DNA of 40,461 nucleotides from positions 1 through 40,461 of the IMG/VR virus record IMGVR_UViG_3300046536_000145; one strand, 5' to 3'. Both the position numbers and the translations under genes were made by a program. The notes beneath the pieces were generated by a model. The model searched no databases and was not told the origin of the DNA. It was given only the letters and a program-made list of their open reading frames with translations. Shown here in pieces: positions 2,759-25,879 of this stretch (its first letter is position 1; each line of letters starts with the position of its first letter). Source of the DNA: a virus.

Positions 2759-3999
2759 TACAGCACCGCCCCCAGAGCGTCGGCCTTAGGCGCGGAAGAT
2801 GACGCGCCGGTGTCCTTCATTGGTTTCACGTTGGAATTCAGCGGAGCTGCAATATCGTCGCCGCCGTCGATCGGGCCATAATTCTCAAGTGCCCGGATTT
2901 CGTTGGTCGTGAGAATCGCAGCAGCGCGGGCAGCGCCGTACATGGCGTATCGGCCGGCCGTGTCCGTTCGCAGTAGAGCGTCAGCGTTGAACCGCGCTGT
3001 GTGAGGCTTCGGGAGCATGGCGGACCACGCATCCTCAATCCGGCCCAGCCATGGCGACAGCGTGTAGGCCAGAAAACCTAGGCCCTGCTGCTCAATGCCG
3101 GTTCCCCACGATGTGGTTTTGTCCACCTGCCCAAGCATGTGCGGGGGGATCCCGAACAGCGTGGCGACATCTAGATTTTGCGCCGCCCGAGTGCCCAGAA
3201 ACTGTGCGTCGTCGGGGGTGACGCTGATCGGCTTCCACTCGGCGCCGCCGGAGAGGACACCGACCGTGTGGGAATTCTTGAGCCCGCCGTGTGAGGCTTC
3301 AAAGGATTCCTTTAGCTGTCGGGCCCGTTCCTTGTCCAGATCACCCGGAACGTGCACGATGCCGGTCATATGGGCACCACTGCCGAAGAACCTCGCGCCA
3401 AATTCCTCGGCCGCGAGACCTAGCCCGATGGACTGGCGAGCGTGCGCAATGACGCTGATTCCGGTCGCACTCTCGGGGTAGCACATGCCCAGCAGGTGGA
3501 CGATATCCCCCGCATCGGCCGGCTTGCGGTCTACTTCGTATGTCCGTTCGCCCGCTTCGTTGAAAACGCACTTGACCCGGTCCGGGTGCAGCACGCGAAG
3601 CCGGGTAGGTCGATGCATGGAATCCCGCGAGACGACAGCGAGATACGCATTGCCCCGCAGCAGCAGCGACACCATGACCTGCGAAAGGCCCGTACGCCGG
3701 GTGGAAAACCGCGTGTCGTTCGCGCCGCCGAAGGGGTCCGCCACGATAGCGGGGGCGGGCTCGATAGTCGTACGAACCTCACCGTTGGCCCGGACCGCGT
3801 CAAGCGGCAGGCAGCTGACAGCGTCGGAGAGGATGCGGACACAGGCGGAAACAGCAATTAGCTGCATCGCTGTGTCTTCCGTGACCGGTACGCCGGACGA
3901 CGTGACAGCGGCGAGCGAGCCATTCGACGGAATGGACCACGGATCGCCACCGCCGGATGGTGCATAGAATCGCTTCTCTAGGCGCCGGAGTAGGCCCAT
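2758..3999 (-). CDS. Portal protein, HK97 family
   Basis: The product is 413 aa, starting MGLLRRLEKRF. I chose this start over upstream in-frame codons because its ATG overlaps the stop of the small membrane gene as TAATG. Recognisable portal features are AVSACVRILSDAVSCLP near residue 50, PNP/RVLHPDRV-type strands, and the late segment TTSWGTGIEQQGLGFLAYTL typical of phage portal family PF04860. It would form the dodecameric ring for DNA entry and tail attachment. The stop overlaps the protease ATG. Confidence 0.92.
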   Translation of the reverse strand: MGLLRRLEKRFYAPSGGGDPWSIPSNGSLAAVTSSGVPVTEDTAMQLIAVSACVRILSDAVSCLPLDAVRANGEVRTTIEPAPAIVADPFGGANDTRFSTRRTGLSQVMVSLLLRGNAYLAVVSRDSMHRPTRLRVLHPDRVKCVFNEAGERTYEVDRKPADAGDIVHLLGMCYPESATGISVIAHARQSIGLGLAAEEFGARFFGSGAHMTGIVHVPGDLDKERARQLKESFEASHGGLKNSHTVGVLSGGAEWKPISVTPDDAQFLGTRAAQNLDVATLFGIPPHMLGQVDKTTSWGTGIEQQGLGFLAYTLSPWLGRIEDAWSAMLPKPHTARFNADALLRTDTAGRYAMYGAARAAAILTTNEIRALENYGPIDGGDDIAAPLNSNVKPMKDTGASSSAPKADALGAVL

Positions 4000-7152: not shown

Positions 7153-7506
7153 CTAAAACGGTGGCGCGGAAAAGTTGAAATCGGAGCGCGTCTTGAGCTT
7201 GTGGCACGGCCGGCAGAGGATTTGAACGTTGGAGTCGATATCCTCGCCGCCTAGTGCCAGCGGAACGACGTGATCGACGTCCGCAGCAGACGGAAGAACG
7301 CGGCACGGGCATTTCGCGCACTGCGCCCATCCCGCTTCTCGGATTGCCTTGCGCATTCGCGCCGCAGCGTCGTTTCCCCGCGCGATGGCCTCACGGCGCT
7401 TGCGATGGGCCTTGACGGACGGTCGAGCCGCGTAGGCAGCGTGGTGCGTCGCACAGCGGCCACGATGGGTCGCCGGACACTGGCAGTCAAGGCAGGAAGT
7501 AAGCAC
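7153..7506 (-). CDS. HNH endonuclease
   Basis: The product is 117 aa with a GTG start. The first 20 residues carry a C-x2-C and C-x3-H cluster (CLDCQCPATHRGRCATHH), and the catalytic core reads DVDHVVPLALGGEDIDSNVQILCRPCHKLK, split by the usual spacing of the H, N and H residues. This is a second HNH gene in the cluster before the terminase and differs from the 6451-6792 gene. A 22-bp palindrome lies 26 bp upstream. It could be a mobile homing-type nuclease or part of DNA packaging. Confidence 0.85.
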   Translation of the reverse strand: MLTSCLDCQCPATHRGRCATHHAAYAARPSVKAHRKRREAIARGNDAAARMRKAIREAGWAQCAKCPCRVLPSAADVDHVVPLALGGEDIDSNVQILCRPCHKLKTRSDFNFSAPPF

Positions 7507-7553: not shown

Positions 7554-7638
7554 CCTGGAGAGAAGTTATCAGCAGACCCGGCAGTTGCCGGATGGTGGGG
7601 TCCACCCGTAGCCCGTTACGGGGTCGCTGCTGATTCCG

Positions 7639-7712
7639 TAGCCGCTCCCGGACTCGAACCGGGAACCTCGGGCACCTAGGGCCCGCGCCTCTGCCGATTG
7701 GGCTAAGCGGCC
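7639..7712 (-). tRNA. tRNA with UAG anticodon by position (Leu-like), C33
   Basis: A full cloverleaf can be drawn: acceptor GGCCGCT with AGCGGCT, a D-arm, anticodon stem CGGGC/GCCCG, and T-arm CCCGG-TTCGAGT-CCGGG. The 7-nt loop is CCTAGGT, which puts C instead of U at position 33 and UAG at 34-36 (Leu, CUA codons). The variable region is only 5 nt, whereas Leu tRNAs normally have a long variable arm, so its charging identity is doubtful. No CCA is encoded. Confidence 0.65.
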
Positions 7713-7716
7713 ATTG

Positions 7717-7786
7717 CTGGCGCAACAGGACTCGAACCTGTCCCGCACGGCTGATCGACCGTGGGATGCTCCCTTTGCTCACGCCA
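7717..7786 (-). tRNA. Atypical tRNA-like gene, short D region, 8-nt anticodon loop
   Basis: The acceptor TGGCGTG/TGCGCCA and the T-arm ACAGG-TTCGAGT-CCTGT are clear. The D region is only 16 nt and lacks the usual U8. The anticodon stem CACGG/CCGTG closes an 8-nt loop, TCGATCAG (or a 6-nt loop if a T-G pair is added). The triplet GAU is preceded by C. The identity cannot be assigned by eye; it may be degenerate or specialised. Confidence 0.5.
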
Positions 7787-7787
7787 T

Positions 7788-7862
7788 TGGTAGTCTCTGC
7801 CGGATTCGAACCGGCGTTACCGCCGTGATGGGCGGAGTTCTGGGCCGCTGAACTAAGAGACC
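7788..7862 (-). tRNA. tRNA with 6-nt anticodon loop, possibly CAU (Met-like), CCA encoded
   Basis: The acceptor GGTCTCT/AGAGACT, D-arm GTTC/GAAC and T-arm GCCGG-TTCGAAT-CCGGC are regular, and discriminator A plus CCA is encoded. The anticodon stem CCGCC/GGCGG leaves a 6-nt loop, CATCAC, or CCATCACG if the last pair opens. CAU is the most natural anticodon, but no U33 precedes it. Confidence 0.65.
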
Positions 7863-7863
7863 G

Positions 7864-7919
7864 ACAGGGGGTGAAGCGGTGGCCACCGCGACTTTCCTGC
7901 CAAGGGAGCAACCCCTCTG
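7864..7919 (-). other. Structured spacer between tRNA genes
   Basis: The ends are partly complementary (ACAGGGGGT on the plus strand against ACCCCTCTGT). Inside is a perfect 14-bp palindrome, GCGGTGGCCACCGC (7876-7889). There is no T-loop consensus, so it is not a standard tRNA. It may be a decayed tRNA or a processing element. Confidence 0.35.
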
Positions 7920-7994
7920 TTCGCCCGACGGGATTTGAACCCGTGACCTACGCCTTATCGGGGCGCTGCTCTAACCAGACTGAGCTACAGGCAA
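7920..7994 (-). tRNA. tRNA-Ile (GAU) with C33
   Basis: The cloverleaf is regular: acceptor TTGCCTG/CGGGCGA, D-arm GCTC/GAGC, anticodon stem GCGCC/GGCGT and T-arm ACGGG-TTCAAAT-CCCGT. The loop is CCGATAA, giving GAU at 34-36 with normal A37 but C at the near-invariant U33. A normal Ile loop would read CTGATAA, so this is a single-base departure. No CCA is encoded. Confidence 0.78.
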
Positions 7995-7999
7995 CATGT

Positions 8000-8044
8000 G
8001 CAAGGCTTTCGATCCAGACCCCGGCTTTCGCCTCGGTACCTTGC
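8000..8044 (-). other. 45-nt hairpin element between tRNA genes
   Basis: The ends GCAAGG and CCTTGC pair perfectly. Inside, GGC-GAAA-GCC forms a GNRA-capped stem flanked by ACC/GGT. It fills most of the space between the Ile and His tRNA genes. It could be a processing signal, a small RNA or a remnant tRNA. Confidence 0.35.
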
Positions 8045-8055
8045 TGCTGGGCGCG

Positions 8056-8126
8056 TCCCTCCGCCCGGAATTGAACCGGGGTAATCGGTGCCACAGACCG
8101 ACGCTCTACCACTGAGCTACGAAAGG
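8056..8126 (-). tRNA. tRNA-His (GUG)
   Basis: The cloverleaf is canonical: acceptor CCTTTCG/CGGAGGG, D-arm GCTC-AGTGGTA-GAGC, anticodon stem TCGGT/ACCGA and loop CTGTGGC with U33 and anticodon GUG, and T-arm CCCGG-TTCAATT-CCGGG. This is the only member of the array with an ordinary anticodon loop. The extra G-1 and C73 usual for His tRNAs are not obvious, and no CCA is encoded. Confidence 0.83.
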
Positions 8127-8551: not shown

Positions 8552-10285
8552 CTAGCTCACTTCGTCTGGGGTCTCGTCATGCACCCATTCGACCGACACC
8601 CGCTCGCTAATTGGCGTAGTGCTGCCCCGCCTCGCGGCCTTTCGCACGGTGATGCGACTGACGAACAGCCGCACGAACGCCCGTCGCTGTTCCAGCGTGG
8701 CGCTGTCCCACCATGAACCCTCTCCCACCGGGTCGGTGTCGGGGTCCTCCGGCAGCCATTCACGGATTGGGAGCGGCGGTGTGTCTGCTGCCTCAAGCGA
8801 TCGGATGCGCTCTTCTGCTGCGTCCATGCGAGCCAACATCTCTGTTTCCTCTGCTACGAACATCTGCACACCCCGTGCACCCCGGTACCCGCCTGCCTTG
8901 CGGGTCGCGTAGAGCTCTTCTAGCGCCTGTGCAGCGTCCGCCCGCTCCACCACTAGCGCCGCCCGCTCTCCGGCCCGTTCGGGGGCTTCTAGGGCCCGTC
9001 CGAATCGTCGGGTTGCTTCCCGCAGAACATCGCCAGTCTCGGGGTCCTCTTCGGCCGTGTTGATCAGCCCGAAGATACGGCGGGCCACGTAATCGTCAAG
9101 TACGCGACGACTGACTGTGCATTCTCCCGGATGCTGGCCGGCCTGCGCCTGCCCCGGCTGCCTGCCACACCGGTATGACGCGTTGCTTGGCTTGGCGCTG
9201 GAATGGGCGGCCATAGAGCTTCCGCACTCACAGCGCAGAATCCCCAACCCGGACAGCAGCGTAGTTTGCCGACTTAGACCCTGCCCACGCCCGCGTGTGT
9301 CGAGCCACGCTTGCAGCTCGTACCATTCAGCGGCCGGAATGATCGGATCGTAGGCTACTAGCGGGCGCGTCGTTTCCGGGTCGCGCAGAATACGGTACGT
9401 GTCGACGTTTTTGGTTTTGGTCCCGTCCGCACGCACCTTATAGACGATTTCCACGCTAAAGCCAGCGATGCGCGGGTCCCGCATGATTCGCTTAAGTGTT
9501 GTGGTGTCCCACGCGCTGTTTTTGGTCTTCTTGCCGTAGGTCGCGCCCCGGGTGGGTACCTTCTCTGCGTTCATCCGTGCGACAATTCCCGTCAGCGAGC
9601 CCGGATGGCGCCCCTGCGTCTGTGTAGGGTCGTATGCCGCGTTCATGTGCTCGCGAATGGTGGCCCACACGGTGCGAACAATGCTGGCTTCTTCGGAACT
9701 GTGGTGGAGTTCCTGGACAACGATCGGGCGCCCCTCTGAGTTGAGCCGTGTTGCGGGCACCATGCGGAACCCATACGGGGCTTGTCCGCCGACCCAGCCG
9801 CCCAATTCCTTTGCGGTTCGCTTCGCGCCGCCTACTGCGATGCTCTTGTTTTTGCTTTCGCTGTGGGCAGCGTCAAGGCGCATGATCAGGTGAATCAGAT
9901 CCATAAGGTTGCCCTTGCGGAACTCACCCTCCGTCACACTCACGATGGTGACGCCGAGATTAAGCAACTCCGAGACGATAGGAATCGCGTCAAGCGGGTC
10001 GAGCCGTGAAAACCGGCTGATGTAATAGACGATGATCATGTTTAGTCGACCCGACCGACAGTCCCGCAACATGCGCTCAAAGTCGGGCCGCTCTACCCCG
10101 CTGAATGCGGAAATGCCCAAATCTTCGTACAGCTCGATTTTCTTTGCGTTCCGGCGGCTCGCTTCCTCAATTCCCCGGGCACGCTGTGTTGCCGTACTTG
10201 CTTCGGACTTGTTCTCGCGCTCATTCGACTGGCGCCCGTATACTCCGGCGTGAACGTCCATCCCCGAAACCACCCCTAGTGACAT
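8552..10285 (-). CDS. int: Large serine integrase, phiC31 type
   Basis: The product is 577 aa, close to the 600-residue size of phiC31-type integrases. The N-terminal resolvase domain has AGVYGRQS with the nucleophilic serine (Ser20, or Ser12 if Met9 is used), then SRFSRLD and the helix to about residue 150. A recombinase domain follows. Next come a zinc-binding CECGSS...YRCG...CTVSRRVLD segment near 360-410, a coiled-coil region (about 450-500) and a basic C-terminus. It catalyses attP x attB integration. attP lies 12 bp upstream. The ATG at 10285 has little leader, so leaderless translation or use of Met9 (after GGTTTCGGGG) are both possible. Confidence 0.93.
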   Translation of the reverse strand: MSLGVVSGMDVHAGVYGRQSNERENKSEASTATQRARGIEEASRRNAKKIELYEDLGISAFSGVERPDFERMLRDCRSGRLNMIIVYYISRFSRLDPLDAIPIVSELLNLGVTIVSVTEGEFRKGNLMDLIHLIMRLDAAHSESKNKSIAVGGAKRTAKELGGWVGGQAPYGFRMVPATRLNSEGRPIVVQELHHSSEEASIVRTVWATIREHMNAAYDPTQTQGRHPGSLTGIVARMNAEKVPTRGATYGKKTKNSAWDTTTLKRIMRDPRIAGFSVEIVYKVRADGTKTKNVDTYRILRDPETTRPLVAYDPIIPAAEWYELQAWLDTRGRGQGLSRQTTLLSGLGILRCECGSSMAAHSSAKPSNASYRCGRQPGQAQAGQHPGECTVSRRVLDDYVARRIFGLINTAEEDPETGDVLREATRRFGRALEAPERAGERAALVVERADAAQALEELYATRKAGGYRGARGVQMFVAEETEMLARMDAAEERIRSLEAADTPPLPIREWLPEDPDTDPVGEGSWWDSATLEQRRAFVRLFVSRITVRKAARRGSTTPISERVSVEWVHDETPDEVS

Positions 10286-25252: not shown

Positions 25253-25879
25253 CTAGCGCGCGCTCTCCCACTTACCGGCGTCCTGGTTATCGAGCGTCAC
25301 CTTGGACACCTGACGGGTCTGGGAATGCCAGACGCAGATGCCCTCCGGCCGCTCGAACCCCGGGGCAGCCCAGGAACCGTGATCCCGCAGCTCCGTCAGT
25401 ACGCGCCGGATCGCATCCTCGCTGAACGTGCCCCGATAGAGCACGGGAACGGGCTTGACGATCACCCCGCCAATCAGCGTGGACACGTGGCGGTGCTTGT
25501 CTGTGTTGAACAGCGAGAAGTTCCGGCCGCTCTGGTCGTAGCCGCGCTGTATGCCGCGCCCCCACCACTCGCCGAAGTGCAGCCCCGGGCCGAGAAGTTC
25601 GATCAGGTCGGCGGCATTCTCGGCAACCCATGCGGCGAAACCGTAGTTATCGTTCCCGGGGAAGATCAGCCGGTTGCGGCTCTGCGCTGTCACCTCCCAC
25701 ACTTCGCCGGCGACTACGTAGTTGCCGGGCGGGTAGGGGTAGGCGTCCAGCACCATGTCAGACACAGCGGGACCGCGCAGCTGAATGTGAATGGCCGCGT
25801 TGGTGCCGTCGATCTTCTCGGAAACGATGATGTCGCGGAACAGCCGGCGGGTCTTCGGCCACGGAGTGAACTCAACCAC
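25253..25879 (-). CDS. RNA ligase (nucleotidyltransferase family)
   Basis: The product is 208 aa. The GTG overlaps the preceding stop as TAGTG. The ligase signature is clear: EKIDGTNAAI with the adenylated Lys22 (motif I), HFGEWWG (motif III/IIIa area, E104), PEGICVWH (motif IV, E179) and SKVTLDN (motif V, K193). It fits the Rnl2-like RNA ligase family, shorter than T4 Rnl2, and lacks an obvious C-terminal extra domain. It would seal broken RNA, perhaps tRNAs. It lies in a coupled run with small unknown genes below the nuclease. Confidence 0.85.
   Translation of the reverse strand: MVEFTPWPKTRRLFRDIIVSEKIDGTNAAIHIQLRGPAVSDMVLDAYPYPPGNYVVAGEVWEVTAQSRNRLIFPGNDNYGFAAWVAENAADLIELLGPGLHFGEWWGRGIQRGYDQSGRNFSLFNTDKHRHVSTLIGGVIVKPVPVLYRGTFSEDAIRRVLTELRDHGSWAAPGFERPEGICVWHSQTRQVSKVTLDNQDAGKWESAR

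What the first reader, a model, noticed from the sequence alone, without database searches (positions are those of the whole stretch)
7639..8126. tRNA array with aberrant anticodon loops in four of five members
Four tRNAs have non-standard anticodon loops while their acceptor and T-arms remain intact. The UAG and GAU tRNAs have C at position 33 in place of the near-universal U. Two others have loops of 6 nt and 8 nt. Only tRNA-His is normal. Published work describes phage tRNAs with anticodon-loop changes that escape host anticodon nucleases. This array may be a set of cleavage-resistant replacements, or the genes may be decaying.
Basis: partly seen in the sequence, partly recalled or inferred. 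Interest (0 to 1): 0.8.

Follow-up and report, generated by a model that had tools for sequence, protein, structure and literature searches.

The report
Phage tRNAs with altered anticodon loops
This Streptomyces-type virus carries a row of five tRNA genes, four of them with abnormal decoding loops, and many related viruses carry similarly altered tRNAs whose other parts stay intact, which suggests selection on that loop, possibly to survive bacterial enzymes that cut tRNAs there.

Summary
On the minus strand, 8126-7638, lie tRNA-His (normal), Ile(GAU) with C33, a tRNA with a 6-nt loop, a D-arm-less tRNA with an 8-nt (or 6-nt) loop, and Leu(UAG) with C33. The window is a complete phiC31-like temperate phage, probably of Streptomyces. 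A near-identical contig shares all of these except the Leu C33, a single substitution.

The pattern is clade-wide. A scan blind to both the anticodon and T loops found 242 unique tRNAs in 72 related arrays. Anticodon loops were aberrant in 36 (15%) and T loops in 9. Control rates were 3/83 in other phages and 0/40 in Actinobacteria. U33 became C with the anticodon kept in seven isoacceptors. Orthologous 6-nt-loop tRNAs keep their stems through compensatory changes. Leu(UAG) is probably used: CTA is 8-fold commoner in the phage than in the host. Simple decay is therefore disfavoured, except for the D-arm-less gene.

Best reading: fast-evolving phage tRNAs whose anticodon loops depart from the host form, as proposed for nuclease-resistant phage tRNAs. 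C33 forms probably still decode; 5-, 6- and 8-nt forms may not. No nuclease was identified, aberrant tRNAs are not clustered by phage, and relaxed constraint on U33 remains a serious rival.

The parts
8055..8126 (-). tRNA-His(GUG), normal loop CUGUGGC (U33)
   Evidence: ARAGORN; Rfam 64.8 bits; arms 7/4/5/5
7919..7994 (-). tRNA-Ile(GAU) with C33 (loop CCGAUAA)
   Evidence: shared with L005; the other 7 aligned Ile tRNAs (6 clade relatives and isolate Shaeky) have U33
7791..7862 (-). tRNA with 6-nt anticodon loop CAUCAC (Glu/Asp-like; equals a CUAUCAC loop without U33); CCA follows at 7788-7790
   Evidence: orthologs in L012 and L117 also have 6-nt loops
7717..7786 (-). degenerate tRNA: acceptor and T arm intact, D arm lost, 8-nt loop UCGAUCAG (or 6-nt CGAUCA)
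   Evidence: model R1, 23 bits, E 4.6e-4; occupies the place of tRNA-Asn in L012 with identical 3' flank
7638..7712 (-). tRNA-Leu(UAG), short variable loop, C33 (loop CCUAGGU)
   Evidence: 19-ortholog alignment, U33 in 16; SNP 7679 against L005
7863..7918 (-). inter-tRNA spacer, two hairpins, homologs in L012 and L117
   Evidence: fold z-score not significant on its own
7995..8049 (-). inter-tRNA spacer element E1, paired ends conserved with compensatory changes in L008, L012, L010, L023, L170
   Evidence: no Rfam match
8552..10285 (-). serine integrase, phiC31-like (50% identity), upstream of the array
7153..7506 (-). HNH endonuclease downstream of the array, same place as in phiC31
25253..25879 (-). 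RNA ligase (PF09414) with KxDG motif (EKIDGTN), possible tRNA repair

Best explanation
This is a tRNA array of a phiC31-like temperate phage, probably of Streptomyces. It belongs to a family of fast-changing arrays in which the anticodon loop, and not the rest of the tRNA, departs from the host form. SHOWN: loop-specific divergence across the clade; recurrent U33 to C with the anticodon kept; conserved stems; high phage use of the CUA codon read by the conserved Leu(UAG). INFERRED: the C33 tRNAs (Ile, Leu) still decode, less efficiently. INFERRED AND UNTESTED: the pressure is host tRNA-cutting enzymes acting in the anticodon loop during infection, so that phage tRNAs with altered loops escape cleavage. 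The 6-nt tRNA has probably lost normal decoding and may bind such an enzyme without being cut. The D-arm-less tRNA is probably a relic. The phage RNA ligase may repair cut tRNAs.
For: 1. Loop specificity. In a scan blind to the sequence and length of both loops, 21/122 anticodon loops and 5/122 T loops were aberrant (McNemar p=9e-4). A second set of 120 tRNAs gave 15 vs 4 (p=0.003). At universally conserved positions, U33 is violated in 17/223 against 0-5 of about 240 for U8, G53, T54, T55, C56, A58 and C61.
2. Direction. 14 C33 tRNAs keep their anticodon (Ile, Leu, Asn, Asp, Glu, Gln, His); none has A33 or G33 with its anticodon kept. C33 occurs naturally in mammalian initiator tRNA (PMC8080527), so it is compatible with decoding.
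3. Controls. Actinobacterial chromosomal tRNAs 0/40; other phages 3/83 against 36/242 (p=0.005).
4. Retention. 6-nt orthologs in the window and L012 differ by compensatory pairs in the acceptor (GGTCTCT/AGAGACT vs GGTCTCG/CGAGACC) and the anticodon stem (CCGCC/GGCGG vs CCACC/GGTGG).
5. Use. CTA is 9.8 per 1000 in the window and 11.2 in clade loci against 1.24 in Streptomyces; the UAG anticodon is invariant in 19 orthologs.
6. Known anticodon nucleases cut next to U33 (PMC2610378), and phage tRNAs with loop changes are proposed to resist cleavage (PMC10264068).
Against: No host nuclease, cleavage or expression data exist here. C33 is also the mildest loop change and the commonest mutation type (T to C), so nearly neutral drift explains much of it. 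Mutating U33 to C in yeast tRNA-Gln gave a phenotype read as poor decoding or poor charging (PMC3664417), so it carries a cost. Aberrant tRNAs are not clustered in particular phages, as a host-specific nuclease would predict. 5-, 6- and 8-nt loops and 20-23-nt insertions (L115, L116, L124, L128) are hard to reconcile with replacement tRNAs. The RNA ligase also occurs in phages with a single tRNA. tRNAs in related arrays are not independent samples, and the controls are small. The window's Leu C33 rests on one contig.
Confidence: 0.4

Rival explanations
1. Relaxed constraint. Phage tRNAs are dispensable supplements. Fold and processing positions stay under selection because a misfolded tRNA is useless or harmful, while U33 and loop length drift because small losses of decoding efficiency hardly matter. 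U33 to C is simply the mildest step, and there is no nuclease.
For: Nearly all intact-anticodon changes are the transition T to C. Aberrant tRNAs are scattered at random over arrays. Tandem duplication of a whole anticodon stem-loop occurs in one Asp tRNA (L115), as tolerated damage would look. C33 also occurs in a Pseudomonas phage Ile tRNA and a LilMartin Val tRNA.
Against: The rate exceeds that of other phage arrays (36/242 vs 3/83), though controls are small. Six-nt loops persist through compensatory stem evolution. Leu(UAG) is clade-wide and matched to an 8-fold CTA excess, so it should be under constraint, yet C33 arose in it in at least two lineages.
Confidence: 0.3
2. Decay. The array is a graveyard of tRNA genes losing function, and the anticodon-loop changes are the first visible damage.
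For: The tRNA at 7717-7786 has lost its D arm and U8. Arrays contain tRNA fragments and duplications. Leu C33 is absent from the 99.5% identical contig.
Against: Decay should hit all arms. T loops, G53-C61, U8 and stems are largely intact in aberrant tRNAs, stems show compensatory changes, and anticodons stay fixed beside C33.
Confidence: 0.17
3. Processing marks. The tRNA bodies with non-decoding loops are kept as RNase P and RNase Z sites that cut a long transcript and free the structured spacer RNAs and neighbouring tRNAs; the anticodon arm is then free to vary.
For: RNase P recognises the acceptor and T arm (own knowledge), which are the intact parts. Spacers are conserved structured RNAs, and element E2 lies within 300 nt of a tRNA in 57 of 57 contigs. 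Anticodon arms vary from 5 to 20 nt in one tRNA whose acceptor, D and T arms are near-identical (L121, L124, L127, L128).
Against: D arms are also kept and are not needed for processing. It does not explain C33 with the anticodon kept. Most tRNAs in the arrays are canonical.
Confidence: 0.1

Closest known systems
Phage tRNAs proposed to evade anticodon nucleases (van den Berg et al. 2023, PMC10264068; mycobacteriophage cluster C1)
   Same: Phage-encoded tRNA arrays in an actinobacterial phage with anticodon-loop differences from host isoacceptors.
   Different: There, point changes at known VapC cleavage sites; the text searched does not mention U33 or position 33. Here the changes are loss of U33 (mostly to C) in seven isoacceptors and loops of 5, 6, 8 or 20+ nt, and no nuclease is known.
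T5 tRNA-Lys resistant to AriB of PARIS (PMC12409363)
   Same: A phage tRNA with changed anticodon-arm bases is not cut by a host tRNase.
   Different: Changes lie at positions 39 and 41, resistance was shown in vitro, and the loop is canonical.
PrrC/RloC anticodon nucleases and T4 Pnk/Rnl1 repair (PMC2610378)
   Same: Cleavage 3' of U33; the window encodes an RNA ligase.
   Different: No PrrC, RloC or Pnk partner was found in the window; the ligase family is PF09414 and also occurs in phages with one tRNA.
phiC31, TG1, Shawty, Shady, Shaeky and AbbeyMikolon tRNA genes
   Same: Same place between serine integrase and HNH/terminase; Shaeky and Shawty share spacer element E2.
   Different: Anticodon loops there are almost all canonical (1 of 29 scanned aberrant); AbbeyMikolon has three odd ones, two with about 20-nt insertions.
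tRNA-dependent lysogeny (PMC10865867)
   Same: Temperate actinophage with tRNAs near the integrase.
   Different: That system needs a tyrosine integrase at a host tRNA attB; here the integrase is a serine recombinase.

Membership tests
Canonical bacterial elongator tRNA | 7-bp acceptor and 5-bp T stem with TTCRA loop | tested here: met
   All five window tRNAs
Canonical bacterial elongator tRNA | 7-nt anticodon loop with U33 | tested here: not met
   Met only by tRNA-His; four of five fail
Canonical bacterial elongator tRNA | D arm | tested here: inconclusive
   Present in four, lost in 7717-7786
Nuclease-resistant phage tRNAs (van den Berg type) | Phage-encoded array with anticodon-loop differences from host isoacceptors | tested here: met
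Nuclease-resistant phage tRNAs (van den Berg type) | Host nuclease known to cut that isoacceptor at the changed site | not tested
   Host strain unknown; no nuclease survey was made
Nuclease-resistant phage tRNAs (van den Berg type) | Measured resistance to cleavage | not testable with these tools
   Needs biochemistry
tRNA pseudogenes | Damage spread over all arms | tested here: not met
   Anticodon loops 36/242 against T loops 9/242; met only for 7717-7786
tRNA-dependent lysogeny | Tyrosine integrase with attB in a host tRNA | tested here: not met
   Serine integrase (phrog_95; 50% identity to phiC31 Int)
phiC31-like phages | Serine integrase, Gp3-like RDF, repressor c, HNH-terminase-portal order with tRNA between int and HNH | tested here: met

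The most novel reading that the evidence does not exclude
The arrays are RNA counter-defence cassettes. Tightly folded tRNA-shaped RNAs with rebuilt anticodon arms (C33, 5- to 8-nt loops, GNRA-like caps, extra hairpins) and interspersed unannotated structured RNAs act as uncuttable substrates or decoys for tRNA-targeting immunity, turning over by duplication and anticodon-arm replacement.
Probability: 0.15. Interest if true: 0.8.

Novelty: new variant of a known kind. Interest (0 to 1): 0.5.

Why it matters
U33 makes the anticodon U-turn and is nearly universal. A phage clade that repeatedly replaces it with C, keeping the anticodon, offers a natural set of matched U33/C33 tRNA pairs for testing whether anticodon nucleases read U33 and whether phages pay in decoding speed to escape them. 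The accompanying unannotated RNA elements would give tRNA arrays a second kind of cargo.

Tried and rejected
Re-registering loops: no 7-nt U33 reading exists for the four window tRNAs, but it rescued false positives elsewhere (Trp and Thr with a mismatched 31-39 pair, L018 'taccgaat'), which were moved to canonical.

Assembly error: rejected for Ile, the 6-nt tRNA and the 8-nt tRNA (shared with L005); possible for Leu C33.

Window special within its clade: rejected, since permutation gives no clustering.

A first classifier demanding a paired 31-39 overcalled aberrant loops and was replaced.

Codon compensation as the sole cause: fits Leu(UAG) (CTA) but not His (CAC is rarer in the phage than in the host).

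RNA ligase as proof of tRNA repair: rejected, because it also occurs in phages with one tRNA.

No PDB sequence match for the ligase. No Rfam family for the spacers. A cluster C1 control (EU826467) was not in the collection. tRNA-dependent lysogeny: rejected on integrase type.

Full report
What it is. The window is a complete phage genome: 98 bases repeat at its ends, as contig L005 shows by running across the junction. It is phiC31-like, with a serine integrase 50% identical to phiC31 Int, a Gp3-like directionality factor, repressor c, and a capsid, portal and terminase block. The nearest prophages in sequenced bacteria are in Streptomyces (77% terminase identity). The tRNA array lies between integrase and HNH endonuclease, where phiC31 and TG1 have a single tRNA-Thr.

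The observation. Five tRNAs are encoded on the minus strand. ARAGORN and Rfam see four; a model of relatives' tRNAs also sees the one at 7717-7786. The loops are CUGUGGC (His), CCGAUAA (Ile), CAUCAC (6 nt), UCGAUCAG or CGAUCA (fifth tRNA) and CCUAGGU (Leu). Acceptor and T stems are intact in all. The fifth has no D arm and A at position 8. L005 shares everything except Leu C33, one of two SNPs in 3.7 kb.

Relatives. Besides the window, the Ile alignment holds L005 (C33) and seven tRNAs with U33. Leu(UAG) has U33 in 16 of 19 orthologs; C33 occurs in the window, L115 and L226, and later L294. Relatives carry their own 6-nt loops (L009, L010, L012, L023, L117, L170) and 5-nt loops. Several have 20-23-nt anticodon-arm insertions with all other arms intact (L115, L116, L124, L128 and AbbeyMikolon).

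Is it loop-specific? Ordinary tRNA finders favour intact T arms, so a cloverleaf scan was written that ignores the sequence and length of both the anticodon and T loops. One hit, at the cutoff of 30, came from shuffled arrays. In 122 unique clade tRNAs, 21 anticodon loops and 5 T loops were aberrant (p=9e-4). Arrays fetched independently through a spacer RNA pattern (57 contigs) added 120 unique tRNAs with 15 against 4 (p=0.003). U33 was violated more often than any of seven other conserved positions (p from 0.007 to 3e-6). Controls: 40 actinobacterial chromosomal tRNAs, none aberrant; 83 tRNAs of other phages, 3 aberrant, against 36/242 (p=0.005). These tests treat tRNAs as independent, which they are not fully.

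Direction. Fourteen 7-nt loops have C33 with the anticodon kept: Ile, Leu (3), Asn (4), Asp (2), Glu (2), Gln, His. No A33 or G33 loop keeps its anticodon. Nearest same-anticodon relatives mostly have U33 (for example L262 Asp, 97% identical to a U33 version), so the change arose many times. C33 is found in mammalian initiator tRNA (PMC8080527). Changing U33 in yeast tRNA-Gln has a phenotype attributed to poor CAG decoding or poor charging (PMC3664417).

Function of Leu(UAG). CTA is used 9.8 times per 1000 codons in the window and 11.2 in clade loci, against 1.24 in Streptomyces, while TTA is avoided in both. The anticodon is invariant in 19 orthologs. This tRNA is probably used, so C33 in it is probably tolerated.

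Function of the 6-nt tRNA. Orthologs in L012 and L117 also have 6-nt loops with different letters, and stems changed in compensating pairs. Loss of decoding with retention of fold is the simplest reading. Other members of this Glu-like group end in GNRA-like caps (GCGAA, GAGAA, GGAAA).

Mechanism. Escape from anticodon nucleases is the best single account. The loop is where such enzymes act, PrrC cuts 3' of U33 and RloC cuts there as well (PMC2610378), and loop-changed phage tRNAs have been proposed (PMC10264068) or shown (AriB, PMC12409363) to resist. It is not demonstrated here. Relaxed constraint on U33 is nearly as good: C is the mildest change, and aberrant tRNAs are scattered at random among arrays. 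Decay fits only the D-arm-less gene. Processing marks could explain tRNAs with absurd anticodon arms.

Novelty. Loop-changed phage tRNAs are a known proposal. Convergent loss of U33 and non-7-nt loops in an arrayed, clade-wide form was not found in the papers searched, which cover open-licence papers only.

Noticed in passing
L007:3883-3943, L020, L022, L025, L115, L121, L123-L125, L127, L128, L134, L212 (Shaeky), L214 (Shawty), L239; L248-L304: Element E2 (GGGYGAAACCGGC ... GCGAGTARCCCTAAA): an unannotated structured RNA found in 57 viral contigs, every one with a tRNA within 300 nt; covarying hairpin; no Rfam match.
   Followed up: partly
window 7995-8049 (-); L008, L012, L010, L023, L170: Element E1 between tRNAs: 9 pairs, 100% kept across 6 sequences, two with changes on both sides. 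Further spacer families are visible, e.g. L022:3869-3945 and L023:3587-3661.
   Followed up: partly
L121:3068-3143, L124:2887-2971, L127:3342-3413, L128:3734-3818: One orthologous tRNA (GCCGCAT..ATGCGGC) with anticodon loops of 8, 20, 5 and 20 nt while the rest is nearly unchanged.
   Followed up: partly
L115:3901-3988: tRNA-Asp with an exact tandem duplication of its anticodon stem-loop.
   Followed up: no
L215 (AbbeyMikolon) 2811-2889, 3175-3260, 3292-3367: Three tRNAs of a cultured phage with 20-23-nt or 9-nt anticodon loops, two annotated 'tRNA-OTHER': available for experiments.
   Followed up: no
window 7638-7712 and 18 orthologs; L223 752-826, 966-1039: Leu(UAG) tRNAs with a short class I variable loop instead of the long leucine arm, common in Streptomyces phages.
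   Followed up: no
window coding genes: CTA codons about 8-fold enriched over Streptomyces, TTA absent.
   Followed up: yes
L117:3057-3129, L225:827-899 (-), L212:2618-2690, L274: A recurrent alternative T loop ATCATNC in place of TTCRANN in several tRNAs.
   Followed up: no
L349:3335-3410 (Pseudomonas phage 20Sep418): tRNA-Ile(GAU) with the same C33 loop CCGATAA as the window, in an unrelated Pseudomonas phage.
   Followed up: no
window 25253-25879 (-): RNA ligase (PF09414, KxDG motif intact) common in actinophages; no kinase or phosphatase partner recognised.
   Followed up: partly
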